NCBI RefSeq assembly: GCF_014218275.1
Contig: NZ_AP023213.1
Span: 4,274,954 to 4,338,953, forward strand
Length of the DNA: 64,000 nucleotides
Source: Citrifermentans bremense
Lineage (GTDB): Bacteria; Desulfobacterota; Desulfuromonadia; Geobacterales; Geobacteraceae
Reading direction: 5' to 3'
Part shown: positions 15,607-53,634 of the stretch, piece after piece
How positions within the stretch are numbered: the first letter of the stretch is position 1
How the letters are laid out: the number at the start of each line of letters is the position of its first letter
Position numbers and translations under genes: made by a program
Notes under the pieces: generated by a model
The model's input: the letters and a program-made list of their open reading frames with translations, nothing else
Told to the model about the DNA's origin: nothing
Databases searched by the model: none

Positions 15607-16767
15607 ATGGCGGAAGGTCTCGAACTGAGGAAATTTCTGGCCCCCGAGTTCATATTCGGCGCGGGAGCCCGGGAGCTGGCAGGGAGATACGCCAAGAACC
15701 TGGGCGGGCGCAAGGTCCTTGTGGTCTCGGACCCCGGGGTAGTCGAGGCGGGGTGGACCAAGGACGTGACCGACAGCCTTGAGGCCGCAGGGCTTGCCTA
15801 TGTCCTCTTCACCGACCTCACCCCCAACCCCAAGGTCGAGGAGGTCATGGCCGGGGTGGCGCTGTACCAGGCGGAGCACTGCGACCTGCTGGTGGCGGTG
15901 GGAGGGGGAAGCCCCATCGACTGCGCCAAGGGGATCGGCATAGTCAGCACCAACAAGAGGCACATCCTCGAGTTCGAAGGTGTCGACATGGTGAAATCCC
16001 CCATGCCGCCCTTGATCTGCATCCCCACCACCGGTGGAACCTCCGCCGACGTCTCCCAGTTCGCCATCATCAGCAACCCGATGGAGCGGGTCAAGATCGC
16101 CATCATCAGCAAGTCGGTGGTCCCGGACATAGCCCTCATCGACCCCCTCACCCTCACCACGATGGACCCCTACCTGACCGCCTGCACCGGCCTCGACGCC
16201 ATGACCCACGCCATCGAGGCCTTCGTTTCCACGGCCCGCTCCAACATGACCGACCTGCACGCCCTGGAGGCGCTGCGCCTGCTCTCGGCGAGCCTCATCC
16301 CCAGCATCCGCAACCCCGAGGACCTGAGCCTTCGCGGCGACGTGATGATGGGGAGCCTGCAGGCCGGGCTTGCCTTCTCCAACGCTATCCTGGGGGCGAC
16401 CCACGCCATGGCGCACAGCCTCGGTGGAGCGCTCGACCTGGCGCACGGGGAGTGCAACGCCATCCTTTTGGACCACGTCATCGAGTTCAACTTCGCCACG
16501 GCCGAGGAGCGGTTCGAGCGCATAGCTCAGGTCATGGGGCTCGACCTGCGGGGCCTCCCCGCCCAGGAGAAGAAGAAGGCCCTTTTGCGGCATGTCAGGG
16601 AGTTGAAGGCGCAAGCGGGGGTGGCCCGGACCCTGGCCCAGGTGGGGGTGGGACGCAGCGACGTCGCCCTCTTCAGCGAGCACGCGCTCAAAGACCCATG
16701 CATGGCGACCAACCCGCGCCGCCCCTCCAAGAGGGACATCGAGGTCCTCTATGAAGAATCCCTCTGA
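15607..16767 (+). CDS. Iron-containing (group III) alcohol dehydrogenase
   Basis: 386 residues, the usual length. It shows the NAD(P)-binding VAVGGGSPIDCAKG near residue 97, IPTTGGTSADVS, and the metal-binding region DAMTHAIEAF with later His residues in ATHAMAHSLGG and DLAHGECNAILL. It reduces or oxidises a short-chain aldehyde/alcohol with NAD(P)H; the substrate is not evident. The C-terminus overlaps the following sensor kinase by 17 bases, so the two are translated from one mRNA. The start follows AAGGGAGACGGGAAC. Confidence 0.92.
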   Translation: MAEGLELRKFLAPEFIFGAGARELAGRYAKNLGGRKVLVVSDPGVVEAGWTKDVTDSLEAAGLAYVLFTDLTPNPKVEEVMAGVALYQAEHCDLLVAVGGGSPIDCAKGIGIVSTNKRHILEFEGVDMVKSPMPPLICIPTTGGTSADVSQFAIISNPMERVKIAIISKSVVPDIALIDPLTLTTMDPYLTACTGLDAMTHAIEAFVSTARSNMTDLHALEALRLLSASLIPSIRNPEDLSLRGDVMMGSLQAGLAFSNAILGATHAMAHSLGGALDLAHGECNAILLDHVIEFNFATAEERFERIAQVMGLDLRGLPAQEKKKALLRHVRELKAQAGVARTLAQVGVGRSDVALFSEHALKDPCMATNPRRPSKRDIEVLYEESL

Positions 16768-18766
16768 CCCCGGGCCCGATCCCCAGGACGCCCTGGCGGC
16801 GCTGCAGCAAAAGCTCGCGGGGCTCGGGGAATCCTCGATGCGCAAGAGCTACTACCCCGAACTGCAGGAGCGCCTGGAGGAGCTGGAGCGTTTCAAGGCG
16901 TTCCTGGATCACAGCAACGACGCCATCTGCCTGGTAGAGGCCTCCACCGGACGCATCGTGGACCTGAACGACTCGGCCAGCCGCCAGACCGGCTGGAGCC
17001 GGGACGAGCTGCTGCAGCAGTCCCTCTTCGATCTCTCCAACCTGCAGCAAAACGCCGCAGCAGAAGCTCTGATCCTTTCCTCCGAGGAGATGGCAAGCGT
17101 CCGGATCCTCGCCGTCACCGAAGTTCACCGCAAAGACGGCGGGATTTTCCCCGCCGAGATCACCCTGAACCGGATGCAGTTCCGGGACCGCTCCTACGTG
17201 CTGGCGGTCGCCCGGGACATAACCCAGCGCAAGGCAATGGAGGAGGCGCTCAGGGAGAGCGAGGAATTCCTCAAGAACATCGTGGACCACATCCCCGCGG
17301 TGGTTTTCGCCAAGGAGGTGCAGGAACTTCGTTTCGTCACCATCAACAAGGCGTGCCAGGAGGTGTTCGGCTTGAGCCGCGCCGAGGTGCTGGGACGGAC
17401 CAACTACGACCTCTTCCCGAAGGAGCAGGCGGAGTTCTTCACCAAGGTGGACCGGGAGACCTTGGCCAAGGGGGAGCTGGTGGAGGTCCCGGAGGAGATC
17501 ATCAGCACCCCGAACGGCGACCGGATACTGCGGGTAAAGAAGATCCCGCTCTTCGACAACCAGGGGAAGGTCCGTTTCCTGCTGGGAATCGCCGAGGACA
17601 TCACGGAAAGGAAGCAGCTGGAGGAAAAGCTGCTGCAATCGCAGAAGATGGAGGCCATCGGGCAGCTGGCGGGGGGGGTGGCGCACGACTTCAACAACAT
17701 CCTGATGGTGATTCTGGGGTACGGGAGCATCCTCGTCAACGAGGAGACGCTGCCGGCGCGGCAAAAGGAGCAGGTGGAGCAGATCATGAACGCTGCGGAC
17801 AAGGCGGCGAAGCTCACCTCGGACCTCCTCGCCTTCAGCCGGAAGCAGGTGATCAAGCCCTCCACCATGGACTTGAACGACATCATCCTGCACGTGGAGA
17901 AGTTCCTCTCCCGCATCATCGGCGAGGACGTCCAGCTCAGGGCGCGGCTCACCCCGCGCGAGCTGCAGGTCGACGTCGACCGGGGGCAGATAGAGCAGGT
18001 GCTGATCAACCTCGCCACCAACGCACGGGACGCCATGCCCAAGGGGGGGCTGCTCACCATCGAGACCTCGGCGCAGAGAATCGACGAAGCCTTCGCCCAG
18101 GCCAACGGCATCGGCGTCCCCGGCCCTTATGCCGTCATCTCCATCTCCGACACCGGGGTAGGGATGGACGAGCAGACCCGCAGGAGGATCTTCGAACCGT
18201 TCTTCACCACCAAGGAGGTGGGGAAGGGAACGGGCCTCGGGATGTCCATCGTCTATGGCATCATCCAGCAGCATAGCGGCTTCGTCAACGTCTACAGCGA
18301 GCCAGGGCTGGGGACCACCTTCCGCATCTACCTACCCTTCAGCGAACAAAGCGCCGAGGCGGCCTTGGAGCCCGAGGTCGCAGTCGCCCCTCCGGGTGGA
18401 ACTGAGACCATACTCGTTGTTGAGGACGAGCCGGACCTGCGCCTGCTTTTGCAGAACATCCTCTCGGGGGCGGGGTACCGCGTGCTCCTGGCGGAAAACG
18501 GGCAGGTCGCCGCCGACCTCTACGCGGCCCGCGCGGGAGAGATAGCCCTGGTGCTGATGGACATGATCATGCCGGGGATGAGCGGCAAGGAAGCCTGCCA
18601 CGTCATCCGCGCGGTAGACCCGGCCGCGAAGGTGCTCTACACCAGCGGCTACACCATGGACATCATCAAGAGCCGGGATCTGTTGGATGAGGGGACGGAA
18701 CTCCTGATGAAACCGGTGCGCCCCGTGGAACTGCTGAAGAAGGTTCGGGAGATGCTGGACAGGTAA
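16751..18766 (+). CDS. Soluble PAS-PAS hybrid histidine kinase with receiver domain
   Basis: 671 residues without membrane segments. Order: a coiled N-terminus (1-50), PAS (about 50-165), PAS with PAC (about 172-288, ending [13 protein letters not shown]), HisKA with the phospho-acceptor His312 in GGVAHDFNN, HATPase with DTGVGMD and GKGTGLGMS, and a C-terminal receiver with phospho-Asp604 (VLMDMIMPG) and Lys in MKPVRP. It senses a cytoplasmic signal, possibly redox or a small aromatic. The start lies inside the 3' end of the alcohol dehydrogenase gene (GAGGTCCTCT before ATG), a tight coupling that suggests a shared stimulus. No output regulator is adjacent. Confidence 0.93.
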
Positions 18767-18800
18767 GTCAATTGACAATGGACAATTGACGATTGACAAC
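18765..18800. repeat. Short ATTGAC-type intergenic repeat
   Basis: CAATTGACAATGGACAATTG followed by ACGATTGACAA, made of near-repeats of a 7-8 base unit and weakly self-complementary (CAATTG occurs twice). It lies just after the histidine kinase stop. Compare the other low-complexity intergenic repeats at 53552-53632 and 63159-63207. Confidence 0.5.
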
Positions 18801-18897
18801 GGGTTTGCTTTTTGACAGGTCGCGGCGTTAAAAGGGTGCCCGGCGGCGGGGGCAGGTTAGTTCGGAAACCATGCGGTATTTCAGGAAAGCGGAAGGA

Positions 18898-19977
18898 TCA
18901 GCTCCGGCAGCGTAAAAGGAAGAGCTTCTCCGCGTAACTCTCCGCCATAGCCAATTCCTCCGGTGAGAGTGCTGCGGCGGGGACGGGTTTCTTGAAGCGG
19001 CGTAGAAAAGCGCAATCACGGCGAGTCAGCGGCTGGTTTGCCTCCCCCAGGCGCCCGGCTATCAGCAAGGGCGTCAGGTGCGGCCGCGACAGCACCCCCT
19101 CAAGACAACGGTTGAGCCGGAAGCTTCCCCCCTCCGAGCATCCCCCCCTGACATCCTTCCCCAGGTAGAGCACGAAGTTCCCCGGGCTCTCGCGCCGTTC
19201 CTCCATCTCCCTGATCCTGGCCGCCTCCTGTTCCGGGTCGGAGAGGGCGCCGCGGTGAGCGAACAGAAGCGGCTTGAGCCCACTCCCCCCCACGAGATCC
19301 AGGAAACGGTCGATCTTGAAGCTGGTAACCAGGGGGTGCAGCAGCGCATCCGCGAGCCCCGATCGCGACGACACCTCCTCCGACTGCTCGAAGAATTCCC
19401 GCAGGCGCGATCCTTTCCTGCTGCGGGCGACCATCTGCAACACATGTTCGGGGGAGCGCACCCGCAAAAGACGCAGCGCCCGCCGGATCGAGTCTTCCTC
19501 CCAGCGGGTATAGGTGCTGTAGACCATCACCCGCAGTATCCCCCCCTCTCCCAGCCTCTTTCCCAAGGCGACAAGTCCCGCCAGCGGGTCTTCCAGGTGG
19601 TGCAGCACCCCGTAGCAGTCGATGAACCCGAAAGGTCCGGGGGCAATGAGCGGGTCGAGAAGGTCCCCCGCGAGAAACTCAGGGCGCGTCATGCCGTGCA
19701 GCAGGCAGTGCAGCCGTGCACGGCGCAGGCTTTTATCCGAGAGGTCGAGGGCGGTGATGGCGCTGCCAGGGTTGGCGAGGGCAAAGGGATAGGGGGCGAA
19801 GCTGCCGCAGCCGGCAATGAGGATGCGGCGCAGGTGGTCCGGAGGTAGTTCGCCGTTGAACCGGGCCCAAAGGGCTTCCAGGTTGTTGGCGTATGTGTCG
19901 CAGCGGCGCACGGAGGCCAGGAGGGGGTAATCCGGGTAGGGGTACAGCTCGTAATGGCGGCGCACGCTGTCGGGCAT
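18898..19977 (-). CDS. SAM-dependent class I methyltransferase
   Basis: 359 residues. The N-terminal VRRHYELYPYPDYPL is typical of a methyltransferase subfamily. Motif I is ILIAGCGSFAPYPFALA near residue 53, the acidic strand ALDLSDKSL follows, and motif IV is DCYGVLHHLEDP. A C-terminal helical extension of about 140 residues is not recognised. I chose the ATG at 19977; a GTG three codons upstream is equally open. It follows the soluble chemoreceptor on the same strand, separated by the 9-bp tandem repeat. The acceptor is unknown; a protein or small-molecule substrate is possible. Confidence 0.8.
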   Translation of the reverse strand: MPDSVRRHYELYPYPDYPLLASVRRCDTYANNLEALWARFNGELPPDHLRRILIAGCGSFAPYPFALANPGSAITALDLSDKSLRRARLHCLLHGMTRPEFLAGDLLDPLIAPGPFGFIDCYGVLHHLEDPLAGLVALGKRLGEGGILRVMVYSTYTRWEEDSIRRALRLLRVRSPEHVLQMVARSRKGSRLREFFEQSEEVSSRSGLADALLHPLVTSFKIDRFLDLVGGSGLKPLLFAHRGALSDPEQEAARIREMEERRESPGNFVLYLGKDVRGGCSEGGSFRLNRCLEGVLSRPHLTPLLIAGRLGEANQPLTRRDCAFLRRFKKPVPAAALSPEELAMAESYAEKLFLLRCRS

Positions 19978-20022
19978 GGCGGGCACTCTAGCAAGATCCT
20001 TCGCTCAGGGCAAGGCGGAACC

Positions 20023-20103
20023 GACCTGTCTGACCTGTCTGACCTGTCTGACCTGTCTGACCTGTCTGACCTGTCTGACCTGTCTGACCTGTCTGACCTG
20101 TGC
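20023..20103. repeat. Tandem repeat of the 9-mer GACCTGTCT
   Basis: Eight exact copies of GACCTGTCT (20023-20094) plus a degenerate ninth (GACCTGTGC). It is intergenic, between the chemoreceptor stop (20122) and the methyltransferase start (19977). A shorter array of GACCTGTCC lies at 63615-63647. Confidence 0.95.
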
Positions 20104-20121
20104 GGCCTGTGTGGCCCCCGC

Positions 20122-21651
20122 TTAGAAGGTGAACCGGTTCACCATGGTGGAAAGCTTGGCGACCTGGGCCTCCAGCTCCTTCGCTGCCAGAAGCGAGTCG
20201 GCCGCGCCGGAGGCGTTCTTTTCGGTGACGCCGGTTATGTGGGCTGCCCGCGCGTTGATCTCCTCGATCCCCGCCGTCTGCCCTTCGATGCTTTGCAGGA
20301 TATCGTCGGCAAAGCGGGCTATCGCCTGCGCCGCCTCAACCGCGCCTTCCAGCTCGCGATCGATCTCGCGGGAGATTACCACCCCTTGCCGCGCCAGATC
20401 CTGCGAGGACCTGGTGAGAGCCCCGGTGCTCTTCGCCGCGTCGGCCGACCTGACGGCAAGGGCGTGGATCTCGTCTGTCATCGCCTTGAATTCGTTGCCC
20501 GCCCCCTCGACGTGGGCCGCTTCGACCGCAGCATTCACTCCCAAAAGGTTCGAGAACCTGGCGATCTGCAGCAGGCTCGCTACCAGCGCGCCGAATTCCT
20601 CCTGGTGCTCCTGGCCCAGCTTCTTCTCGAACTCCTTCATCGCATTGGCCGTCTGGGAGCACTGCCGGGAGAGCTTGCGGATCTCCTGGGCCACGACACC
20701 GAAGCCGCCCGCCGAGATCCTCATCCGGGCCGCCTTCTCGACGGTGCTCCCGGCGAGGACCCCGGTCTCCTGGGCAATCCCGTCAATTTCCCCGGCTATG
20801 GAGGCGGTGCTTTCGGCCGCGCCGCTGATCTCGTCCATGGAGGCAAGCATCCGCCCCATGGCCTCCTTGGCCAGGCGGATCGCGTCCGATGCCTTCTTGG
20901 CGTCGGCATTGGCTTCCTTGGAACGCTGCGCGCTCTTCGTGGCGCTCTGGGAGAGCTGCGCGAGACTCACCGAGGTCTCCCCCAGCTCCTTGCTCTGCTC
21001 GCTCGCCCCCTGGGCGAAGGAGGAGCTGACGCTGGAGATGCGTCGCTCCACGTCCGAGACCAGTCCTACCGCCTCGGAGACCTGGGCTATGGCGTCGTTC
21101 AGCGCACCCGCCGTTGAGTTCATCGCCTTTCGGATCGCGGCATGCTCTCCCCGGTATTTCCCGCTCATCCTGCTTTTAAGGTCGTAGCGCGCCAGTCGCT
21201 CCAGCACCTCCCCCGCCTCGTGAATAGGTGCGATGACCGCGTCCAGGGTCCCGTTGAACCCTGCGATCAGCTCCTTCCAGACTCCCTGGTAATCCCAGTC
21301 GTTGCCGCGGGTCCTGAGCTTCCCCTCCCCGATGCTATCGGTCAGGTGCACCGCCTCGGCGTGGATGCCGTAGAGGATGGCCAAAAGGGTGTTGATGTCC
21401 TGCTTGATCTGGTGGAACTCGCCCTGGTACTCGTCGATCACGAACGGGGGGAGCTTGCCGTGGACGATCTCCTGCAGCGCGCCGCCGGCGAGCCGCAAGG
21501 GGGCGACCAGTGCGTCGATCATGCCGTTGATGAGGCTGACCGTTTCCACGTCGTCGCCCTTGAGCCCCTTGAGATCCGCGCGCACGTCGAGCTTTCCCGC
21601 CATCATCGCCTCGGAGAGCTCCTTCACCACCTGGTTCACCGCCTTACTCAT
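20122..21651 (-). CDS. Soluble poly-HAMP chemoreceptor with two degenerate hairpin-tip segments
   Basis: 509 residues, no membrane segments and no sensor domain. Residues about 1-200 look like tandem HAMP-type repeats (for example LIAGFNGTLDAVIAPIHEAG and RYDLKSRMSGKYRGEH). The signalling region is odd. Residues 291-330 (GIAQETGVLAG to FGVVAQEIRKLSRQ) and again 362-402 (QIARFSNLLGVNAAVEAAH to FKAMTDEIHALAVR) each align with one canonical chemoreceptor hairpin tip, and each is degenerate. It is the last gene of the hydrogenase operon, its start overlapping the maturation protease stop by 8 bases. A CheW lies at the operon head, so this receptor probably reports on the hydrogenase or its redox partner. 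Confidence 0.85.
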   Translation of the reverse strand: MSKAVNQVVKELSEAMMAGKLDVRADLKGLKGDDVETVSLINGMIDALVAPLRLAGGALQEIVHGKLPPFVIDEYQGEFHQIKQDINTLLAILYGIHAEAVHLTDSIGEGKLRTRGNDWDYQGVWKELIAGFNGTLDAVIAPIHEAGEVLERLARYDLKSRMSGKYRGEHAAIRKAMNSTAGALNDAIAQVSEAVGLVSDVERRISSVSSSFAQGASEQSKELGETSVSLAQLSQSATKSAQRSKEANADAKKASDAIRLAKEAMGRMLASMDEISGAAESTASIAGEIDGIAQETGVLAGSTVEKAARMRISAGGFGVVAQEIRKLSRQCSQTANAMKEFEKKLGQEHQEEFGALVASLLQIARFSNLLGVNAAVEAAHVEGAGNEFKAMTDEIHALAVRSADAAKSTGALTRSSQDLARQGVVISREIDRELEGAVEAAQAIARFADDILQSIEGQTAGIEEINARAAHITGVTEKNASGAADSLLAAKELEAQVAKLSTMVNRFTF

Positions 21652-22114
21652 GAACGCCTCCCTGTACCAGCCTGCGCACCTCCGCCACCGCGTGGTCGAT
21701 GGCCCCTGCCACGGCGCCGGTCATGAACTCACGGGTCCGGTTGAAGCAGCGCCCCTCGATCCCCACGAGCGTCACCTGCTCCGGCATCTTCTCGGGAAAC
21801 AGCAACCTGCCGATCTCGATGATCTCCCTCAAACCGACCCCGTGCACCGAGATCTCCGGCCCCGCCTCGGGGAGCTCCTGCCACGGTATCACGTGCACCG
21901 CCCCCGGGACCTCCCCCAGTTGCACCGCGTCGACCACGATCAGGTGCGCCTCCCCCTGCAGCATGGCAAGAAGGTCGAAACCGCCCACACCCAGGTACTC
22001 CAGCCGGGCCGCCAGCGGCTCAAGCCTTCGGTATACCTCGTAGCCCGCGGCATCGTCCGCCACCAGCTCGTTCCCTATGCAGACCACTATTGCGCTGTCG
22101 TTTTGAAGACGCAT
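21644..22114 (-). CDS. Hydrogenase maturation endopeptidase (HyaD/HybD family)
   Basis: 156 residues. The motif CIGNELVADDAAGYEV near residue 12 carries the nickel-sensing acidic residue, and VVDAVQLG near 60 and the His in ISVHGVGL near 91 are further conserved. These enzymes remove the C-terminal peptide of the large subunit after nickel insertion. The large subunit here has a 23-residue extension after DPCLSCATH that would be its substrate. The start overlaps the preceding gene by 28 bases. Confidence 0.92.
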   Translation of the reverse strand: MRLQNDSAIVVCIGNELVADDAAGYEVYRRLEPLAARLEYLGVGGFDLLAMLQGEAHLIVVDAVQLGEVPGAVHVIPWQELPEAGPEISVHGVGLREIIEIGRLLFPEKMPEQVTLVGIEGRCFNRTREFMTGAVAGAIDHAVAEVRRLVQGGVHE

Positions 22115-22542
22115 CGTTCACCCACCGATTCAGGAACCGACTTGACCGGGCGGCAGAGGAGCCCGTTCGCGATCCCGTCGAGATAGTAATGGAACAGGCG
22201 GCAGAGGGACTCGCCGGGCTCCTGTTTCCTCAGCCGGCACATCTCCCTCAGGATGCACCTGTCGAAGAGCAGCCGATTTTCCTCCAGGGAAAACTCGAAC
22301 CCCGCCTGCATCTGCCGGGAAAGCGCCTCGATCACCTTTTCCAGGGTCGGCTCCGGTATTTCCAGCGGCAGCTTCTTCGCCGTGTCCCTCCCGGCGATCC
22401 TCCCCACCGGTGCAGTGTTCCCGCCCATGATGTTGTCGATGGTGCTGGCGAAGGCATCCAAGAGGAACGCCACCTCGTTGCGCGCCTTGTCGTAATCCTC
22501 GGCGGTCAGGTCGACGCTGTAGTTCTGGTCGCTCGTGTTCAT
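22087..22542 (-). CDS. V4R-like small protein, hydrogenase-operon associated (copy 2)
   Basis: 151 residues, not a standard hydrogenase accessory protein. The layout resembles V4R-type sensor folds: a helix with AFASTIDNIMGGNTA, a GRIAGRDTAKKLP segment, and a closing LFHYYLDGIANGLL, then an acidic-Cys end GERCVFKTT. The same order of motifs occurs in the protein at 25178-25672, so the two look like distant paralogues. The start overlaps the ferredoxin stop by 4 bases. V4R domains bind small hydrophobic ligands or cofactors and are structurally related to haem-NO-binding proteins. The ligand here is unknown, and the domain call is inference from pattern. Confidence 0.55.
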   Translation of the reverse strand: MNTSDQNYSVDLTAEDYDKARNEVAFLLDAFASTIDNIMGGNTAPVGRIAGRDTAKKLPLEIPEPTLEKVIEALSRQMQAGFEFSLEENRLLFDRCILREMCRLRKQEPGESLCRLFHYYLDGIANGLLCRPVKSVPESVGERCVFKTTAQ

Positions 22543-22793
22543 AGGAATTTCCCCATCTTCCTGCAGAACTCCTCGTCCCGGTAGAAGTTCTTGACCAGGT
22601 GGAAGTCGCGGTGGGTGATCGCGCCGGAAGGGCAGATGTAGGCGCAGGAAAGGCAGGCGATGCAGTCTTCGGCGTGGTCGACGCTGCAAAGCCTTTTCTC
22701 CTCATCCAGTTTGAACACCTTGGTGGGGCAGATGTCGATGCACAGCTCGCACCCCCGGCAGGACTGCTCGTGTACCATGATCTCAACTGGCAT
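22539..22793 (-). CDS. 2[4Fe-4S] ferredoxin
   Basis: 84 residues. Two cluster motifs, CRGCELCIDICP near residue 12 and CIACLSCAYICP near residue 44, followed by a 30-residue helical tail. It lies directly after the hydrogenase large subunit, separated by 3 bases. It is the only obvious electron-transfer protein of the operon, so it may be the hydrogenase electron partner. No flavin or NAD-binding subunit is encoded nearby. Confidence 0.92.
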   Translation of the reverse strand: MPVEIMVHEQSCRGCELCIDICPTKVFKLDEEKRLCSVDHAEDCIACLSCAYICPSGAITHRDFHLVKNFYRDEEFCRKMGKFL

Positions 22794-22796
22794 CTC

Positions 22797-24212
22797 TTAC
22801 CTCCGAAGGGTCTTGACCGTCTCGGCGCCCCGCCTGACCGCTATCTCCAGCGGCATCCGCCCGAGGGCGTGGGTGGCGCAGGAGAGGCAGGGGTCGTAGC
22901 AGCGGATGCTGAACTCGACGGCGTTCAGGAGCGCCCGGTCGTCGGGGCGGTCGATCACGTGGGACTGGGCGGACTGCTCGATGGAGCGGTTGATGAGGGA
23001 GTAGTTCTGCTGGGTCGCGACGATCAGGTTTGCCGCACGCACGATCCCCCGCTCGTCGATCTGGTAGTCGTGGATCAGCGTTCCCCGCGGCGCCTCGACG
23101 TGCCCCACTCCCCTCCCCCCCTGGAAGCGGACCGGGACCCGGGTCTCGCCGCCGATCGCCTTGTCGCGCAGGATCTCTCCCGCCCGCTCGACGGCCCATA
23201 CGATCTCGATCAGCTTGGCGTAGGTCTGGAACACGGTGGTGTGGCAGGGAGCCCCGCCGAGGCGGGCGAACTCGGCGAACTCGGCGTCGGCGAGCTCGGT
23301 CCCGAAGCGGCGCGCCGCGTTCATCCGGGCCATGGGCCCCACCCGGTAGTCGTGCAGCTCGCCGTCGAGTTCCACCTGCACCTTCTTCATGTAGGACCAC
23401 TCCACCACGGACTCGCGCAGGTACCGGTCGTAATCCTCGATGCCGAACTCGACACGGGTGGCGCCGGTATCGTCGATGACGCGGAGCTTCCCCGCGATCA
23501 GGGAGACCCCTTCATCCTGCACTGTTCCCATGCCGAAGCTGGGTACGATCCACTTCTCCCCCATCTCCGGGTGCGCCTCCAGCGCCCGCATCAGGAGCCC
23601 CTTCACCGCCGGAACCACCTGCGGCAGCACCCCTCGCGCCTCGTCCACCCACTCCTTGAGCGCCTTTAGCTTCTCCTGGTCGAGGGTAAAGGCGATGCCG
23701 CCGGCAACCGAGGTCACCGGGTGCGTCCCCCTCCCCCCCACCATCTCGTTGATCTTCTGGCCGATGCTCCGCAGGCGCAGCGCGAGTTTCGCGAGCTCCG
23801 GGTTCGCCTGCACGATACCCACGATGTTCCGGACCCCCGGGTCCGCGTCGAGCCCGAGTACCAGGTCCGGCCCCTGGAGCACGAAGATGGACAGCGAGTG
23901 CGAGTGGATGATGTGCCCAAGGTACATCAGCTCCCGCAAAAGGAGCGCTGCCGGGGGGGGCGTGACCCCTGCCGCGTGGTCCAGAGCGTTACAGGCGGCA
24001 ATGTGGTGCGCCGTGGGGCAGACCCCGCAGATGCGGGCAGTCACGTGCGGCATCCGGTCCGCCTCCATCCCGATCAGGATCTTCTCGAAGCCGCGCAGCT
24101 CGTTCACCACAAGCCCCGCGCTTTCCAGCGCCCCGGCCTCGTCCAGGTTGATGAACACCTTCGCGTGCCCCTCGATCCGGGTCACCGGGTCTATCTTCAA
24201 AGTTCGCTTCAT
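22797..24212 (-). CDS. [NiFe] hydrogenase large subunit (group 3-like)
   Basis: 471 residues. Nickel ligands are complete: Cys62 and Cys65 in RICGVCPTAH and Cys442 and Cys445 in DPCLSCATH. Maturation cleavage is expected after His448, removing 23 residues. The N-terminal IDPVTRIEGHAKVFI is typical. Length and lack of a Tat signal in the small subunit suggest a cytoplasmic MvhA/HoxH-like enzyme; the precise group needs a phylogeny. The start overlaps the small-subunit stop (ATGA), and an ATG two codons upstream is possible. The operon lacks HoxFU, MvhD and HdrA. Confidence 0.92.
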   Translation of the reverse strand: MKRTLKIDPVTRIEGHAKVFINLDEAGALESAGLVVNELRGFEKILIGMEADRMPHVTARICGVCPTAHHIAACNALDHAAGVTPPPAALLLRELMYLGHIIHSHSLSIFVLQGPDLVLGLDADPGVRNIVGIVQANPELAKLALRLRSIGQKINEMVGGRGTHPVTSVAGGIAFTLDQEKLKALKEWVDEARGVLPQVVPAVKGLLMRALEAHPEMGEKWIVPSFGMGTVQDEGVSLIAGKLRVIDDTGATRVEFGIEDYDRYLRESVVEWSYMKKVQVELDGELHDYRVGPMARMNAARRFGTELADAEFAEFARLGGAPCHTTVFQTYAKLIEIVWAVERAGEILRDKAIGGETRVPVRFQGGRGVGHVEAPRGTLIHDYQIDERGIVRAANLIVATQQNYSLINRSIEQSAQSHVIDRPDDRALLNAVEFSIRCYDPCLSCATHALGRMPLEIAVRRGAETVKTLRR

Positions 24213-25156
24213 CGGCATCCCCCGGCCTCGTAATCCGCCTGCTCGTCCTCGATCCAGCGCTTGATCTGAAAGGTGGGCTTGCAGCCGATCATCGAGGCGG
24301 CCATGGTGTAGGAGTAATGGGACTTGGAGGAGCGCTCGATCGAGCTGACGATCTCGTCCCGGTCTATCTTGGTGAGCCGCGACATGCGGTCGGCGATCTC
24401 GGTCCTGATGTCGCGGTTGGGTTCGGTGAGGATCTGCATGGTGGCCCCGGCGCAGCCGGTGCAGGGGACGCCGTTGGTGGGACAGGGGGCGAGGCAGCGG
24501 TCGATGGTAACCGACCCCATGCAGGTGTACCCCTGGCTCAGGAAGCAGCGCTCCGGGTCGGGGATCCCGTCGAAGCTCGACCTGATTTCGGAGACCTCGG
24601 TCTTCTCCATGCTCCGCTTGCACTTGGCGCAGACCGAGCGGCGGCTTACTTCCGGCTCCCTTCCCGCAACGAGGGCGGTCAGCGCCTCGAAGATGAAGGC
24701 CGGGTGCGGCGGGCAGCCGGGAAGGTAGAAGTCGACCGGGATCACGGTGTCCAGAGGCGAAACCACAGATTCGAGCGGCGAGACCTCGCGGTTTGGGGGG
24801 GGAGCGGGAATCGTGGTCTTGTTCTCCAGGTAGACCGCCGCCGCTATCTCCTCCGGGGTATGGATATTCCCCGCCCCCGCCGGGCCGCCAAAGACGGCGC
24901 AGGAGCCCCAGGCGATGACGATGTCGCAGGATTCGCGCATCTTGAGGGCTGCGTGCCGGTCGTGCTCGTTGCGTATGGCGCCCGACACCAGCCCGACAGT
25001 CGCGGGGGGGTACCCCTTGATGTCGGTCAGCACCGGGCAGCGCTGGATGCGCACCGCCTCCAGCACGTTCAGGATCTTCTCGTGCAGGTCGACAATGGCG
25101 ACGTGGCACCCGGAACAGTCGCTCAGCCACTCCGTGTTGACGGTAACTTCACCCAT
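24209..25156 (-). CDS. [NiFe] hydrogenase small subunit
   Basis: 315 residues, no Tat signal. Proximal-cluster cysteines are seen in WLSDCSGCH (near residue 13), WGSCAVFGG and LPGCPPHP. Further Cys-rich motifs (CAKCKRS, GYTCMGSV, CLAPCPTNG, CTGCAG) supply medial and distal clusters as in MvhG/HoxY-type subunits. Electrons from H2 would pass along these clusters to a partner, probably the operon ferredoxin. GGGAGGGTTTC precedes the ATG at 25156. A start 6 codons upstream is less likely. Confidence 0.9.
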   Translation of the reverse strand: MGEVTVNTEWLSDCSGCHVAIVDLHEKILNVLEAVRIQRCPVLTDIKGYPPATVGLVSGAIRNEHDRHAALKMRESCDIVIAWGSCAVFGGPAGAGNIHTPEEIAAAVYLENKTTIPAPPPNREVSPLESVVSPLDTVIPVDFYLPGCPPHPAFIFEALTALVAGREPEVSRRSVCAKCKRSMEKTEVSEIRSSFDGIPDPERCFLSQGYTCMGSVTIDRCLAPCPTNGVPCTGCAGATMQILTEPNRDIRTEIADRMSRLTKIDRDEIVSSIERSSKSHYSYTMAASMIGCKPTFQIKRWIEDEQADYEAGGCR

Positions 25157-25177
25157 GAAACCCTCCCGGCGCAAAGA

Positions 25178-25672
25178 CTATGGATTTCGTACCACGAGCT
25201 TCTTGTAACAGGCGTTCTCGCCGGCGTGCACGATCTCCAGGGACGACTCGCGCCCCATGATGTTCTGGAGCGCACCGGCGAAGAAGCCGTACATCATGTT
25301 GCAAAGCGATCCCTTCTGGACGTGCCCGAAGCGAAACAGCGACTGGCGGATCATGCAGTCCCGGAAGACCAGCATCACCTCCAGCCCCTCCTCCCCCTGC
25401 CGCACCATTTCCTTTTGATCGTGGGTCTTGAACGGCTCGAAGAGCCAGAGGTAGTCGTTTTGCTCCAGGACCCGCCTGGTCGCCGCCAGCGCCTCGTCTA
25501 TCTCCCCGGTCCTCGGGACCCCCTGCGAAAGCTTCTTCCCCAGGTTCACCCCGGCAAGGTACGAGATGTTGCCGGCCGATTCGCCTATGGCCTGTTCCGT
25601 TCCCGACGCTATGGCCCCGAGAAAGACCATCGCGTCCTGCAGGGCCAGCCTGTCGTTGCTTTTTGTCTCCAT
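25178..25672 (-). CDS. V4R-like small protein, hydrogenase-operon associated (copy 1)
   Basis: 164 residues. The C-terminal part, SLCNMMYGFFAGALQNIMGR followed by EIVHAGENACYKKLVVR, fits the V4R domain end (a GFxxGxLxxxxGR helix, then a strand with an acidic residue and a Cys before the final strand). The middle has RDCMIRQSLFRFGH with another Cys. It lies between cheW (10 bases away) and the hydrogenase small subunit (21 bases). A possible job is sensing a ligand and modulating the enzyme or the chemoreceptor. The domain assignment is by eye; no catalytic residues are seen. Confidence 0.6.
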   Translation of the reverse strand: METKSNDRLALQDAMVFLGAIASGTEQAIGESAGNISYLAGVNLGKKLSQGVPRTGEIDEALAATRRVLEQNDYLWLFEPFKTHDQKEMVRQGEEGLEVMLVFRDCMIRQSLFRFGHVQKGSLCNMMYGFFAGALQNIMGRESSLEIVHAGENACYKKLVVRNP

Positions 25673-25682
25673 GGAGTGCTCC

Positions 25683-26108
25683 TCAAGCTAAATGCTTCAG
25701 ATTCATGACCACGACGAGCCTTGGTCCCAGCGACAGGATCCCTTCCATCCAGGGCTCCGACCCAACCTCCAGCGGGGGGAGGATGTCCCCCCTTGCCACC
25801 CGGATCACGTCGGTCACCTCGTCGATGACAAAACCGGTAAGCACCCCGGCGAAATCCATCACCGCGATGCAGTTCGACTCTTCCACCGCACTGTCGGGGA
25901 GGCCGAACCTCTTCTTCAAGGACACTATGGGCACGATGCTCCCTCTGAGGTCGATCACCCCTTCCACGTGGCTCGGGGCGTTGGCCAACTTGGTGACGTC
26001 GGTCAAGTCCACGATCTCGCGGACGTCCATGACGTCGACGCCGTACTCCTCGCTCCCGAGGAGGAAGGTGACCATCTGGATATCGGCGGCTGACGAGGTA
26101 GTTTTCAA
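25683..26108 (-). CDS. cheW: CheW-type coupling protein
   Basis: 141 residues with the CheW fold signature: MVTFLLGSEEYGVDV, VREIVDL, then GVIDLRGSIVPIVSLKKRFG near residue 51. It links chemoreceptors to CheA. The reading starts at a TTG (26108) after AGGGGGA; the first 11 residues are not conserved in type, and a Met at residue 12 could also start. It is the first gene of the hydrogenase operon, with the soluble receptor as last gene, which ties both to hydrogenase expression. No CheA, CheY, CheR or CheB gene is in the window. Confidence 0.92.
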   Translation of the reverse strand: MKTTSSAADIQMVTFLLGSEEYGVDVMDVREIVDLTDVTKLANAPSHVEGVIDLRGSIVPIVSLKKRFGLPDSAVEESNCIAVMDFAGVLTGFVIDEVTDVIRVARGDILPPLEVGSEPWMEGILSLGPRLVVVMNLKHLA

Positions 26109-26518
26109 ACTATCCCCCTGTCTGTGCTGCGGGAAAAATTGGATGCTCTGTCTTTGGCTTCGGGTATCTCAAAGTCAGTTGAAGAGATGGCGGGGAGAAT
26201 GACTGCCGGGAGGCAAACTGAAACGGCGTTCGGCAAATGAGATATGGGGGACTTATCGGGAGCGATTTGCCTTACTTAAATTTTATTTTTTAACAGGAAC
26301 AGATAATTTGAGGCTTAAAATGCCCAATCCCGCCATTCCGTATACGGGATAATTCGAAGCAGAACCTTCGGTTTCTCCCGTACGGGTTCAGCAGTCGTAC
26401 ATTTGCTTCACGTAAGCCTGACTTGGCAAAAGCAAAATTAAAGAAAGGCCCAAAGGCTTTGCGCCTCTGGGCCTTCATTTTGTCACTGCGGCCGGTCTGC
26501 GAAACAGCGGTTAATTTG
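26109..26518. other. Upstream region of the hydrogenase-chemosensory operon
   Basis: 410 bases, AT-rich between about 26270 and 26310. It holds two perfect 10-base palindromes, CCGTATACGG (26338-26347) and CCCGTACGGG (26377-26386), about 230-280 bases before cheW, and the porin terminator at 26445-26475. I see no riboswitch core and no clear -35/-10 pair. Confidence 0.5.
26445..26475 (-). terminator. Terminator of the Tsx-like porin gene
   Basis: Stem AAGGCCCA/TGGGCCTT (26445-26452 with 26468-26475) extended inward by AAGGC/GCCT. On the minus strand it is followed by a T-rich tract. Confidence 0.8.
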
Positions 26519-27307
26519 TTACAGCACCCATTTCACCATGACCTGCGGCGCGTACTCGTTGATGCCGCTGAAACCGTACTTGTTGCGCCAGTAGATGAAC
26601 TCGGTCCCCACGAAGAGGTTGCCCGGCGAGCCCCAGAATTTGCCGGCGTCGAGCAAAAGGCGCGGTTGGGCGTCGATGTTGAAGGCGGAGTTCCCTTCGC
26701 TCCCGGCGATATCGATGAACCCTTCGCAGACGAAGTTCGCCTTGCCGATGTTGAACGGGACCTGCCATGCCGGGGTCACCTGGTAGGTGACACCTTCCTT
26801 GTCCATGCTGTTGCGCACGTACAGGTTCAAGTCCGCGAAGTTGAACTTGGGGAGGTTGAGGCTCAAGCCCATGCCGTAGAGGTAGTTGTGGAATCCCCCG
26901 CCCGACGGGTAGGTGCCCACCTCCAGGGTGCCGGCCAGGAGCACGTCCTTGATCAGCGGAGCGGAGAGGTCCAGCCCGGTGATCTTTCCGAGGCTGAGCC
27001 TCGGGGAGATCTCGCCGTACAGGGAGATGTCGTCTTCGGTGGGATTGGTGATGTCTACGAAGAGGAAGTTGTCGCCGTACTTCCAGGCGTCGGCATGTTC
27101 GATGGTGATGGTGGCCTGGTTGTTGTCCTTCTCTCCAGTCGGCGCGATCCTGAAGTTGTCGCCCCAAAGGTACTGGAGGTTCGTTTCCTGCCACAGCGCC
27201 GCTCCGGCGCTCGCCTTTTCGGGCGCGGCAAACGGCAGCAGCAGGGCTACTGCCAAGGTAACGGTTTTCAGGCTTCTGGACAGGGAACTGCGGATGGATC
27301 TTTTCAT
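26519..27307 (-). CDS. Tsx-like outer membrane channel
   Basis: 262 residues with a signal peptide (RSLKTVTLAVALLLPFAA, cleavage near residue 34 after KASA). The mature part is beta-rich with aromatic strand ends. It starts with LQYLWGDNFRIAP and contains HADAWKYGDNFLFVDITN, features of the Tsx nucleoside-channel family, and ends with hydrophobic VMVKWVL, a typical outer-membrane C-terminus. It forms a small outer-membrane pore; nucleoside specificity is only inferred. AAAGGAGAG precedes the ATG at 27307. Confidence 0.82.
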   Translation of the reverse strand: MKRSIRSSLSRSLKTVTLAVALLLPFAAPEKASAGAALWQETNLQYLWGDNFRIAPTGEKDNNQATITIEHADAWKYGDNFLFVDITNPTEDDISLYGEISPRLSLGKITGLDLSAPLIKDVLLAGTLEVGTYPSGGGFHNYLYGMGLSLNLPKFNFADLNLYVRNSMDKEGVTYQVTPAWQVPFNIGKANFVCEGFIDIAGSEGNSAFNIDAQPRLLLDAGKFWGSPGNLFVGTEFIYWRNKYGFSGINEYAPQVMVKWVL

Positions 27308-27535
27308 CAGGTGCTCTCTCCTTTGGATTCCATGCTTGCTCTGCTGCAAAAGGCGGCTGAAACTAGCACATTTTTCGGTTTGATTCACCTTTTTTTGGTC
27401 ACATTAAACAAAGGCAACACTCCTCCTGCACGGCCGTCGACAGGCACATCGGTATACAAACATGGCAAAAGGCTGCGGCTATGCTAGCATTCAAAGGTCT
27501 TTGACTGAATGAGACTTTAAAAGCAGGAGCTTTGA

Positions 27536-28435
27536 ATGCTGACAATGCAGGAAATAAAGAGCCACTACTACTTCACCGATACCGATGCGAAGCTTCTGGA
27601 AGAGTTGCTTCCCCTGGCCCGGCAGAACTGCGAGGCCATGGTTGAGGAATTCTACGGTTACCTTTTGAAGATTCCGGAGACCGCCGCATTCCTGCGGGAT
27701 CCCAAGGATCTCCAGAAACTGCGCCAGACCCACGCGCAGTGGTTCCTGTCGCTTTTCTGCGGCAGGTACGACAACGGCTACATGATCACGCTGCAGGGGA
27801 TCGGACAGGCGCATGTGCGGATCAAGGTGAGCGCGCATTACGTTAATGCGGCGATGAACGTGGTGCGCAGGTTTCTCATCGAGCTGCTCCAGGCGAACTT
27901 CCCGGAGATCGAGGCCCGACGCAAGTACCGCATCGCGGTGGAGAAGATCCTCGACATAAACCTCGACATCATGAGCACCTCGTATCAGGAGGAGGAACTG
28001 CGCAAGGTGTTCGTCTCGCACCGGCTGGAATCGAAGTTGATCCACGCCGCCGAACGCTTCACCTACGGCCTCAACCTCATTCTGGTCGTGGCGCTGATCA
28101 TCGTGTCATTGTCGGTAGTGGGCTTGTTTTTCTGGGACCTGGTGCACGTATTCAGCGGGAGCATGGAGAAGGGGATCCTGTCGGCGCTGGGTTCTTTGCT
28201 CATCCTCTGGATGATGATCGAGTTGATGGATAACGAGATCAAGACGCTCAAAGGAGGCAAGTTCAACATCCTCATCTTCATCGGGGTGATCATCGTGGCA
28301 CTGATCCGCGAGATCCTGATCTCGACGCTGCGCCACGACGCCCTGGAAACGCAGGCGTTCCTGGCCGGGACCCTGCTCATCCTGGGTATAGTCTACTTCC
28401 TTGTGGCCAAAAGCCAGAACGGCAACATCCACTAG
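27536..28435 (+). CDS. Protoglobin-type globin sensor fused to a PsiE-like membrane domain
   Basis: 299 residues. Residues about 8-155 are a protoglobin / globin-coupled-sensor domain; the likely proximal haem ligand is His93 in GIGQAHVRIKV, with Tyr11/Tyr12 or Trp69 as possible distal residues. Residues about 172-292 form four hydrophobic helices with the charged DNEIKTLKGGKFN loop typical of PsiE (phosphate-starvation-inducible E). The natural reading is a membrane protein whose cytoplasmic haem domain senses O2, NO or CO. PsiE function is unknown. It is monocistronic with a strong terminator. AGCAGGAG precedes the ATG. Confidence 0.82.
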   Translation: MLTMQEIKSHYYFTDTDAKLLEELLPLARQNCEAMVEEFYGYLLKIPETAAFLRDPKDLQKLRQTHAQWFLSLFCGRYDNGYMITLQGIGQAHVRIKVSAHYVNAAMNVVRRFLIELLQANFPEIEARRKYRIAVEKILDINLDIMSTSYQEEELRKVFVSHRLESKLIHAAERFTYGLNLILVVALIIVSLSVVGLFFWDLVHVFSGSMEKGILSALGSLLILWMMIELMDNEIKTLKGGKFNILIFIGVIIVALIREILISTLRHDALETQAFLAGTLLILGIVYFLVAKSQNGNIH

Positions 28436-28472
28436 GGTCGCACCCTCAAGATCCCTGGAACCGCAAAAGGAA

Positions 28473-28498
28473 AGGGCACCTAAGCCGGTGCCCTTTTC
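28473..28498. terminator. Bidirectional terminator
   Basis: 10-bp stem (28473-28482 with 28489-28498) ending AAA/TTT between convergent genes. Confidence 0.85.
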
Positions 28499-28526
28499 TT
28501 TGCGCGTTTTCAATTCCTTTCCAGCT

Positions 28527-28895
28527 TTACCCCACATCCTGCTTTTTCCGGGGCTCGCCGCCGTTTTTCGCATCCACCGCCGCCCCTGTCACTGCCTGAA
28601 CCAGCTTTTTGCAGGTGGAGACGAGCTTCGACAACTTGCCATCCTCGCCGTAGATCTTGTCGTAGAAGATGTTCTCCATGACATGCATCCTGGCTATAGG
28701 CGTCTTTGCCTTTCTGAGCTGCATATCGATGGTCCATTGCAACTGCTGGAGCCTCAGGCTCTGTTCGGGGGTCCTCGCTGTGCAGGCTGTTTTGATGGCC
28801 TCTGCTGCGAGCTGATCGAACAGAGCAGGATTTTCCTGGTACAGCCTGCGCATTTCAGCTGGAGTGTAAAGACTCAGGAGAGATTTAGTACTCAT
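28527..28895 (-). CDS. DUF3135-like hypothetical protein
   Basis: 122 residues, mostly helical and cytoplasmic. The middle (ENPALFDQLAAEAI, then LQQLQWTIDMQLRKAKTP) resembles DUF3135 proteins, which have a similar FxxL helix followed by LQFRIDxxRxxAxxP. Function unknown. GGAGGATGCC precedes the ATG. Single-gene unit, convergent with the globin gene. Confidence 0.6.
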   Translation of the reverse strand: MSTKSLLSLYTPAEMRRLYQENPALFDQLAAEAIKTACTARTPEQSLRLQQLQWTIDMQLRKAKTPIARMHVMENIFYDKIYGEDGKLSKLVSTCKKLVQAVTGAAVDAKNGGEPRKKQDVG

Positions 28896-29208
28896 GGCAT
28901 CCTCCGTCGTACCCCTCGACTCTGTATCGGGTATCAGGGTAACACGTACAGAAGCATTTATTTCCTCTAACTCTGCCTCAATAAAGAAATTAATGCCAGC
29001 ATTTTCGCATACTCCTACCAGGCTGCGCAGCTTATTGATAAATCGCCGGTTCAGCCCGGTCTTCGCGCTTGGACGCCTGGCAATTAAAATAACCTATTGC
29101 GCAGAAGGCGACTTCGGTTTATATTCCCGCACCGCCTACGGGAATTTTGGCACAGGGTGCGTCGCAGGATTGCCAGGCGGCGGCCAATTCATCACAGGAG
29201 GGGAAAAG
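28896..29208. other. Intergenic region between divergent small genes
   Basis: 313 bases. An open frame continuous with the downstream gene crosses it but shows no protein-like composition. TGGCAC near 29150 lacks a correctly spaced GC, so no sigma-54 promoter is called. Nothing else is recognised. Confidence 0.4.
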
Positions 29209-29427
29209 ATGCCTGATTGCGAACTTCTTTCCGGTTGCATCTTCTTCAACGACCGGATGGCGAACATGCCTTCTACCAGCAACGTCTTCAAAATGATGTA
29301 CTGCAACGACAATTTCGAAGGGTGCGCGCGCTATACCGTCCGCAAGGAGGCCGGCAAGGAAAACGTGCCGGAAGACCTCTTCCCGAACCAGATGGACAGG
29401 GCCAAGCAGATCCTCAACAAAGGTTGA
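29209..29427 (+). CDS. Small four-cysteine protein
   Basis: 72 residues. Cysteines 4, 10, 32 and 39 sit in CELLSGC and YCNDNFEGCARY, followed by a conserved-looking VPEDLFPNQMDRA tail. The spacing suggests binding of one metal or Fe-S cluster. I recall similar short proteins in deltaproteobacteria but cannot name a family. The start has GGAGGGG. A terminator follows at 29460. Confidence 0.65.
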   Translation: MPDCELLSGCIFFNDRMANMPSTSNVFKMMYCNDNFEGCARYTVRKEAGKENVPEDLFPNQMDRAKQILNKG

Positions 29428-29459
29428 CGTCCGCTTTGGGGAAGTAGTATTGGAAGTCG

Positions 29460-29488
29460 AAGGCCGCGGTAGACCCGGGGCCTTTTTT
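29460..29488 (+). terminator. Terminator
   Basis: AAGGCC/GGCCTT stem with an inner CGG/CCG and a run of T, directly after the small Cys protein. Confidence 0.75.
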
Positions 29489-29537
29489 CATGGGGCAGCC
29501 GCAGGGTTATGAAGCGGCCAGTTGGAAAGGTAAGAAG

Positions 29538-30458: not shown

Positions 30459-30542
30459 CAAGCTGACGGATGTGACGGGGAGAGAAACGGGAGGGGGGCG
30501 CGAGGCAGGAGACAGTTGTTGCGACACTTCCAAGGGGCGGGG

Positions 30543-31142
30543 TCATCTGCCTGGGACGCCGACCCCGCAAGTGAAGATCTCGAGGTACTGACGCACCAGC
30601 AGTTCGTCCTTTTCCGGAGTATGGTTGATCAGGTTCTTGGTCGCCAGGCTGCTCAGGAAGAAATAATTGACCATCCCCGCCAGCGCCAGGGCCGCGTTGG
30701 TCGGGTCGACATCCTCCCTGAACTTCTTCTGCCGGATCCCCTCCTCGATCACCCCGGCCATGGTCACGATCACCTCATCTATAACCGGCATTACCAAAGG
30801 CTCGAAAAAAGGCGTGGGGTTGGTCAACTCGCTCGTATAAAAGCGCAGCAGGTACGGGTTGTTCCTGTGACGCCGAAAGGTCCAAAGCAGATAGCTCTCC
30901 ACCATCGCCACCGGGTCCGTCACGCGCTCCCTGATCTCGTGGATCTCCTTGAAGCAGTCGAACTGCTGCCGCAACACCTCCTGGTAGAGCCCTTCCTTGC
31001 TGCCGAAATGGTAGGAAATCATCGAGATGCTGGTCCCCGCCGCCAGCGACAGTTCCCGGATACTCACGCCGTGCAGCCCCTTCTCCGAGAACAGCCGTGT
31101 TCCCACCTCCATAAGCTTCTTGTGGCACTCAGTTTTTTCCAT
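30543..31142 (-). CDS. TetR-family regulator
   Basis: 199 residues. The N-terminal helix-turn-helix is GVSIRELSLAAGTSISMISY, followed by HFGSKEGLYQEVL, canonical for TetR. The C-terminal ligand domain resembles fatty-acid/CoA-type regulators (large helical pocket), but the ligand is not predictable. It is divergent from the CoA-transferase gene, and the shared 163-base gap holds a 16-base inverted repeat right after the CoA-transferase -10 box. It is therefore probably the repressor of that gene and of itself. The start at 31142 has GGAG. Confidence 0.92.
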   Translation of the reverse strand: MEKTECHKKLMEVGTRLFSEKGLHGVSIRELSLAAGTSISMISYHFGSKEGLYQEVLRQQFDCFKEIHEIRERVTDPVAMVESYLLWTFRRHRNNPYLLRFYTSELTNPTPFFEPLVMPVIDEVIVTMAGVIEEGIRQKKFREDVDPTNAALALAGMVNYFFLSSLATKNLINHTPEKDELLVRQYLEIFTCGVGVPGR

Positions 31143-31210
31143 GACGACTCCGGCAGATAGGGTATTGGGGCGTAGAGAGTAGCAAAATCGCGAGGGAAAT
31201 ACCAATTTTA

Positions 31211-31239: not shown

Positions 31240-31243
31240 GTAT

Positions 31244-31259: not shown

Positions 31260-31305
31260 CACTAAACGCGCTGGAAACACGCGAAATAGCTAATCAGGAG
31301 GGAAG

Positions 31306-53632: not shown

Positions 53633-53634
53633 TT

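What the first reader, a model, noticed from the sequence alone, without database searches (positions are those of the whole stretch)
20122..26108. Operon joining a cytoplasmic [NiFe] hydrogenase to a private chemosensory pair and two V4R-like proteins
Eight genes on one strand, mostly overlapping or within 25 bases, encode CheW, a V4R-like protein, both hydrogenase subunits, a ferredoxin, a second V4R-like protein, a maturation protease and a soluble chemoreceptor. There is no diaphorase, HdrA or MvhD. Co-transcription of CheW and a receptor with an enzyme suggests that H2 turnover or the redox state of the hydrogenase is read directly by a signalling array: a hydrogen-sensing (energy-taxis) module or a regulatory hydrogenase of an unusual kind. 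The architecture is seen; the coupling is inference.
Basis: partly seen in the sequence, partly recalled or inferred. Interest (0 to 1): 0.82.

Follow-up and report, generated by a model that had tools for sequence, protein, structure and literature searches.

The report
Hydrogenase operon with its own chemoreceptor
A Geobacter-like bacterium carries a hydrogen-splitting enzyme in one operon with two small sensor-fold proteins and a soluble chemotaxis-type receptor, an arrangement kept in many relatives that may report hydrogen or redox state to the cell's signalling system.

Summary
The eight-gene operon is real (cheW, V4R1, small, large, ferredoxin, V4R2, protease, MCP; 20122-26108, minus strand), and its order is kept in 6 of 19 genomes of the genus and in many MAGs. 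V4R1 is below Pfam's V4R cut-off, but its AlphaFold model matches TRAPP Bet3, the MopR sensor domain and the V4R protein MJ1460; V4R2 is its paralogue. The hydrogenase is an Mvh/Vhu relative with intact Ni-Fe ligand motifs but no MvhD or HdrA. The receptor has no transmembrane helix and no recognised ligand domain, only HAMP repeats, and two tandem signalling tips in 26 of 26 homologues tested. A six-gene core (V4R1-S-L-Fd-V4R2-protease) is constant while its signalling neighbours change: none (Desulfobulbales type), MCP, MCP+CheW, or kinase/receiver/roadblock genes with ferredoxin and V4R2 fused. This favours a hydrogenase-V4R core reporting H2 or redox state to exchangeable outputs. That coupling is inference, and since the core also occurs without adjacent signalling genes it may be an enzyme first. 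Geobacter sulfurreducens 'Mvh' (GSU2416-2423, with MvhV) is very probably the same operon (locus-tag argument), so the cluster is known; the V4R pair, tandem-tip receptor and partner swapping were not seen in the paper listings and passages examined.

The parts
25683..26108 (-). cheW (141 aa, TTG start)
   Evidence: Pfam CheW 3.9e-33; found upstream of V4R1 in one 17-row clade
25178..25672 (-). V4R1 (164 aa), V4R/Bet3-fold protein
24209..25156 (-). [NiFe] hydrogenase small subunit, VhuG/MvhG-like (from the Met codon at 25156; the listed ORF starts with TTG at 25174)
   Evidence: Pfam Oxidored_q6 9.8e-29, NCBIfam VhuG 3.3e-73
22797..24218 (-). [NiFe] hydrogenase large subunit, VhuA/MvhA-like, with both Ni-Fe ligand motifs and C-terminal extension
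   Evidence: NCBIfam VhuA 1.1e-100; MvhA 5odc_F 365 bits; motifs seen and counted over relatives
22539..22793 (-). 2x[4Fe-4S] ferredoxin (84 aa)
   Evidence: Pfam Fer4_7 6.8e-11
22087..22542 (-). V4R2 (151 aa, ATG at 22542), paralogue of V4R1; 4-bp overlap with the ferredoxin gene
   Evidence: hhalign to the V4R1 profile 96.9%, E 1.5e-10; C96, C102, C114, H118, C144 in 20 of 20; fused to ferredoxin in L121/L122
21644..22114 (-). hydrogenase maturation protease
   Evidence: HycI 4.2e-13; TIGR00072 1.9e-28
20122..21651 (-). soluble chemoreceptor (509 aa): HAMP repeats plus signalling domain with two tandem hairpin tips
   Evidence: HAMP_2 1.9e-31, MCPsignal 1.1e-19; no TM helix; two tips in 26 of 26 homologues
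20638..20778 (-). receptor tip 1 (about residues 292-338)
   Evidence: HMM of one canonical tip, i-E 1.7e-6, aligned 280-347
20425..20565 (-). receptor tip 2 (about residues 363-409)
   Evidence: HMM of one canonical tip, i-E 5.8e-10, aligned 350-424
26444..26476 (-). terminator-like hairpin of the upstream gene; if it works, the operon's promoter lies between about 26109 and 26443
   Evidence: 14-pair stem plus T-rich tail (4 terminator-like sites found in the region against 3.7 in shuffles, the other three have 5-pair stems)

Best explanation
A cytoplasmic Mvh/Vhu-type [NiFe] hydrogenase with its ferredoxin and two V4R/Bet3-fold proteins forms a complex whose redox or H2-turnover state is passed to a soluble, sensor-less receptor. 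Shown: operon, predicted fold of V4R1, intact Ni-Fe ligand motifs, receptor without membrane anchor or recognised sensory domain, conserved tandem tips, fixed linkage within one clade, different signalling neighbours in other lineages. Inferred: electrons from H2 pass through the small subunit to the ferredoxin and on to a metal or cofactor site on V4R2 (and perhaps V4R1); the changed state of the V4R proteins is relayed to the receptor's N-terminal HAMP region; and the receptor with its own CheW modulates one of the cell's CheA kinases (8 CheA-type dimerisation domains over cut-off in this genome). Output may be energy taxis or a che pathway unrelated to motility.
For: Eight-gene order kept in the CheW clade, and seven-gene order (no CheW) in loci labelled Ignavibacteriae and Syntrophobacterales and in further genomes of the same order. 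MCP-bearing loci form one clade (98/92) with the CheW-bearing ones nested inside (100/99) (CheW clade 98/99 in a re-run with fewer rows). MCP divergence tracks large-subunit divergence (r 0.97 over 20 loci; shared ancestry alone could give this). In 4 of 4 receptors scanned only HAMP_2 and MCPsignal pass their cut-offs, and the window receptor has no TM helix, so its input should come from a partner or an unrecognised domain. Two diverged loci carry the same core, Fd fused to V4R2, beside histidine kinase, receiver-DUF4388 and roadblock domains (L121, L122); L094 has a GGDEF gene overlapping the MCP gene. V4R1 has the fold of the ligand sensors MopR/DmpR/PoxR and of H-NOX, as well as of TRAPP. 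Field proteome: Gbem_3884, called a NiFe hydrogenase subunit of G. bemidjiensis (PMC3589452, section 14 read), falls by locus-tag counting in or next to this operon.
Confidence: 0.5

Rival explanations
1. An enzyme first: a ferredoxin-linked cytoplasmic hydrogenase (H2 production or uptake) in which V4R1/V4R2 are electron-transfer adaptors or assembly factors; MCP and CheW were recruited only in one clade, to steer cells by this enzyme's activity.
For: Core present without MCP/CheW in Desulfobulbales-type loci; ligand motifs and C-terminal extension in 37 of 37; own protease; PMC7894505 section 8 says Mvh, with Hya and Hox, has been suggested to act in H2 production rather than consumption.
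Against: Does not explain the kinase/receiver/roadblock neighbours in L121/L122 or a receptor without a sensor in every MCP-clade locus.
Confidence: 0.3
2. V4R2 is a small-molecule reductase (or carries the substrate) fed by hydrogenase and ferredoxin; the receptor senses the product or cofactor, not H2.
For: Fd-V4R2 fusion in two loci; invariant Cys/His set; 13 of 20 V4R2 homologues weakly hit the ATC_hydrolase family (best 1.6e-6).
Against: No substrate-pathway gene was noticed as constant around the core in the loci viewed (by eye, not counted, and part of the output was cut).
Confidence: 0.12
3. Ordinary neighbours: MCP and CheW are co-transcribed with the hydrogenase with no mechanistic tie.
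For: The genome is rich in MCPs (33 matches to the receptor profile, not all separate proteins), so an MCP near any gene is not rare.
Against: The receptor is present in 28 of 28 testable loci of its clade and has no recognised sensor; the one other own-genome match that spans tip 1 has a single tip.
Confidence: 0.08

Closest known systems
Geobacter sulfurreducens Mvh cluster GSU2416-2423 (includes MvhV, 'methyl-accepting chemotaxis sensory transducer')
   Same: Eight genes with an MCP among them; the large and small subunits are GSU2418/2419, the third and fourth of eight as here if the cluster is read from GSU2416 (passages and sections of PMC8691401, PMC7894505, PMC4667449). Very probably the same operon.
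   Different: Its sequence was not recognised in the collections searched, so homology is argued from locus tags only. The passages seen name no V4R proteins, tandem tips or sensing role; Coppi 2005, cited for it, was not read.
[NiFe] group 3c methyl-viologen-reducing hydrogenase (MvhADG) with HdrA
   Same: Large and small subunits are nearest to VhuA/VhuG and MvhA.
   Different: No MvhD or HdrA near the window operon or in the relatives' loci searched, while both are present in 9 of 9 Mvh-HdrA-type loci of the family used as control; separate clade, 100/100.
[FeFe] group C2 hydrogenases, proposed to sense H2 via MCPs
   Same: Hydrogenase tied to methyl-accepting proteins (PMC9431212 passage).
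   Different: [NiFe] not [FeFe]; V4R proteins; soluble tandem-tip receptor.
V4R/Bet3 (TRAPP) superfamily: MopR, DmpR, PoxR sensor domains, MJ1460, Bet3
   Same: Predicted fold of V4R1.
   Different: 8-15% identity in the rows shown; below Pfam V4R cut-off.
Regulatory hydrogenases (RH, group 2b: HoxBC/HupUV)
   Same: Proposed role as H2 sensor.
   Different: Has C-terminal extension and protease gene; Mvh/Vhu-type subunits. RH features are recalled.

Membership tests
[NiFe] group 3c (Mvh-HdrABC) | VhuA/MvhA- and VhuG/MvhG-type subunits | tested here: met
   NCBIfam VhuA 1.1e-100 and VhuG 3.3e-73 are the best hits, though below the model cut-offs; MvhA 5odc_F 365 bits
[NiFe] group 3c (Mvh-HdrABC) | MvhD and HdrA partners | tested here: not met
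   No MvhD and no HdrA beyond its ferredoxin part in window 15001-32000; both found in 9 of 9 control loci L046-L053, L057
Regulatory hydrogenase (group 2b) | large subunit without C-terminal extension, no protease needed (recalled) | tested here: not met
   23-28 residues after the L2 His in 37 of 37 relatives, the same in the window protein (by eye); protease gene in the operon
[FeFe] group C sensory hydrogenase | [FeFe] H-cluster protein | tested here: not met
   Large subunit is NiFeSe_Hases
V4R/Bet3 superfamily | shared fold over the whole domain | tested here: met
V4R/Bet3 superfamily | Pfam V4R gathering score | tested here: not met
   12.6 bits against 31 for the window protein
Methyl-accepting receptor | MCPsignal domain over cut-off | tested here: met
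   71.4 bits against 34.6
Methyl-accepting receptor | one signalling hairpin | tested here: not met
   two tip matches in 26 of 26
H2-sensing chemosensory module | H2-dependent receptor or CheA output | not testable with these tools
   needs an assay
G. sulfurreducens Mvh (GSU2416-2423) | sequence homology of all eight genes | not tested
   G. sulfurreducens was not recognised among the genomes searched; locus-tag argument only

The most novel reading that the evidence does not exclude
A modular [NiFe] sensor hydrogenase in which two V4R/TRAPP-fold proteins, one of them part of the ferredoxin in some lineages, convert the redox state of the hydrogenase into a protein-protein signal read by exchangeable outputs: a soluble receptor with two signalling tips, or a kinase/receiver/roadblock set. 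It would be a group-3-type [NiFe] counterpart of the MCP-linked [FeFe] hydrogenases and a bacterial use of the V4R fold as a redox relay.
Probability: 0.38. Interest if true: 0.85.

Novelty: new variant of a known kind. Interest (0 to 1): 0.63.

Why it matters
The papers seen give the Mvh hydrogenase of Geobacter no demonstrated role. If it is a sensor, metal-reducing and syntrophic bacteria would have a direct cytoplasmic read-out of H2 or ferredoxin state linked to behaviour, testable in cultured Geobacter. It would also give the V4R/TRAPP fold a job in redox signalling, and the tandem-tip receptor would be an unusual chemoreceptor geometry.

Tried and rejected
Pfam and NCBIfam naming of V4R1/V4R2 gave nothing at E 0.1. 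Solved-structure sequence searches gave two weak hits (E 0.17, taken as chance) for V4R1 and none for V4R2. A sigma-54 promoter pattern (recalled) was absent in 18 of 18 regions of up to 300 bp upstream of cheW, and no sigma-70-like site was found in 19900-26600 (0 found, 0.9 expected). A second tandem-tip receptor at C1:4410886 in the own genome was suspected from a long profile match and rejected: one tip only. Classical regulatory hydrogenase and Mvh-Hdr membership were rejected as listed. Literature: ten searches; in the listings and passages seen no paper describes V4R proteins with a [NiFe] hydrogenase and an MCP (one search listed 20 of 35 papers). Coppi 2005 was not looked up by id; Greening 2016 is not held. 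The Geobacter chemotaxis survey PMC2577667 and the review PMC8396549 hold no occurrence of 'hydrogenase'. Which CheA the pair uses is unknown; MCPs with similar HAMP repeats stand near a CheA at C1 about 1434-1445 kb, a lead only.

Rows dropped or limited: the second tree left out L006, L021, L023, L027 (divergent or outgroup) and L120 (near copy of L119). In the first tree L006 has a branch of 8.3 and disturbs the Desulfobulbales-type group. L102 and L112 (contig ends) are in no tree. L081 is counted in the CheW clade although its contig ends in the ferredoxin gene. Flanks are short after the protease in L095 (about 0.9 kb) and before V4R1 in L096, L109 and L113. L040-L043 and L124-L126 are the same places as L089, L076, L077, L080 and L083, L079, L093 (contig lengths) and are not counted twice in trees or tip counts; L115/L116 and L119/L120 are near copies and are counted. 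The tip HMM was built from a single canonical tip (the regex found one). 'Hox' and 'none' are labels of mine; 'MvhHdr' was first given by eye and then checked.
Full report
Observation. The eight ORFs exist as described, with gaps of 10, 21, -10, 3, -4, -28 and -8 bp, behind a 14-pair terminator-like hairpin at 26476-26444 on the same strand. Domain scans give CheW, Mvh/Vhu-type small and large subunits, a dicluster ferredoxin, a HycI-type protease, and a receptor with HAMP_2 and MCPsignal domains. HdrA and MvhD from a relative (named by NCBIfam) find no counterpart in window 15001-32000 apart from the operon's ferredoxin, which matches the ferredoxin part of HdrA. The genome is one 4,458,493-bp contig that also holds other [NiFe] hydrogenases, among them a cluster with HdrA and MvhD near 650 kb (L057).

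Hydrogenase. All 37 full-length large subunits from the genome-contig loci keep R[IV]CGxCxxxH and DPCxxCxxH and 23-28 further residues; the window protein shows the same (by eye). The nearest solved relatives are MvhA (5odc, 365 bits) and 7t2r_D (361.5 bits). So it looks catalytically competent and processed.

Receptor. The window protein has no membrane helix; in 4 of 4 homologues scanned only HAMP_2 and MCPsignal pass their cut-offs. An HMM of one canonical tip finds two tips in 18 of 18 homologues of alignment A9 and in 8 of 8 further ones, some near copies; in L094 Pfam's best MCPsignal stretch is tip 1. In tip 1 the second limb looks better conserved, in tip 2 the first (by eye). The meaning is unknown.

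Distribution. V4R1 is found in 6 of 48 family genomes, all 6 in the window's own genus (6 of its 19), in 32 of 277 class genomes and in 6 of 395 phylum genomes drawn evenly. A genome-contig scan gave 39 loci, found through two peptide patterns and so not a census. Of these, 38 continue into the small subunit (the contig of L112 ends in V4R1) and 36 show V4R2 and the protease; L081 and L102 end earlier. The ferredoxin-V4R2 overlap is 4 bp in 35 of these 36; the other (L114) is probably a start-codon choice of my script. The control queries found MvhD in none of the core-bearing loci searched and HdrA only as a ferredoxin-sized match, against both in 9 of 9 Mvh-HdrA loci.

Changing partners. The large-subunit tree (60 rows) puts the MCP-bearing loci in one clade (29 rows, 98/92), with the CheW-bearing loci nested in it (17 rows, 100/99): consistent with one gain of each. 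In the second tree (55 rows) the core-bearing hydrogenases are one side of a 100/100 branch from the Mvh-HdrA types, with L121/L122 as their own branch (100/100). Those two have long branches, so their place is unsure. Within the MCP clade 28 of 28 loci with sequence past the protease carry the MCP. Desulfobulbales-type loci (17 tree rows) show neither MCP nor CheW by tblastn in the flanks held, and 8 of 8 of their genomes searched whole have no receptor match at 1e-25. L121 and L122 have ferredoxin fused to V4R2 and neighbours with histidine kinase, receiver-DUF4388 and roadblock domains; in L122 these run into V4R1 on the same strand, in L121 they are divergent. L094 has a GGDEF protein overlapping the MCP gene.

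Expression. G014 has exactly the 4,615,150 bp reported for G. bemidjiensis (PMC2996986, passage). Just beyond the operon lie a CoA-transferase and a citrate synthase that fit ato-4 (Gbem_3897) and Gbem_3905, and between them a 763-aa protein that fits norZ (Gbem_3901) by position only (NCBIfam gave nothing at 1e-20). Counting ORFs back places the operon near Gbem_3882-3889, give or take two or three. Gbem_3884, called a NiFe hydrogenase subunit, was detected in a Rifle aquifer proteome (PMC3589452, section 14 read). It is therefore probably this hydrogenase; the exact subunit is not settled. For G. sulfurreducens, MvhV of the GSU2416-2423 Mvh cluster is in the list of detected proteins of two proteome papers (PMC7894505 section 8; PMC8691401 section 17), and the latter reports the clusters other than Hyb, Mvh among them, as more abundant in a syntrophic coculture.

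Mechanism. The best reading is a hydrogenase-ferredoxin-V4R complex that reports H2 or redox state to a receptor without its own sensor. The chain hydrogenase to ferredoxin to V4R2 to HAMP region to CheA is inference; only anatomy, predicted fold, motifs and linkage are shown. The main rival is an enzyme-first view in which signalling was added in one clade; the Desulfobulbales-type loci are the strongest evidence for it. The two are not exclusive, since energy taxis could read a working enzyme.

Novelty. The cluster as such is named in Geobacter literature as Mvh. Hydrogenases tied to MCPs are known as an idea from [FeFe] group C2 (PMC9431212 passage). In the listings and passages of ten searches (under Tried and rejected) I did not find the V4R pair, the tandem-tip receptor or the exchange of signalling partners around a fixed core.

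Noticed in passing
20023-20101: Perfect 9-bp tandem repeat (GACCTGTCT, 8.8 copies) between the MCP stop and the next gene.
   Followed up: partly
46471-58648: Complex I (nuo) genes; the 389-aa NuoD-type protein at 55988-57157 gives a weak NiFe-hydrogenase match.
   Followed up: partly
27536-28435: Protoglobin domain fused to a PsiE-family domain (299 aa), close upstream of the operon on the other strand.
   Followed up: no
13684-15291: A membrane MCP with HAMP and MCPsignal domains lies about 5 kb downstream of the operon.
   Followed up: partly
L134 (own genome C1:1430000-1448000): MCPs whose HAMP repeats resemble the operon receptor's N-terminus stand near a CheA; possible array partner.
   Followed up: partly
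L047:3929-10468: In another genome of the genus an MCP-like protein stands directly upstream of a hydrogenase with HdrA and MvhD, a second hydrogenase-MCP neighbourhood.
   Followed up: no
L121:4841-11989 and L122:4969-10966: Ferredoxin-V4R2 fusion and kinase/receiver-DUF4388/roadblock neighbours of a diverged core; the L121 genome (G226) also has the MCP version.
   Followed up: yes
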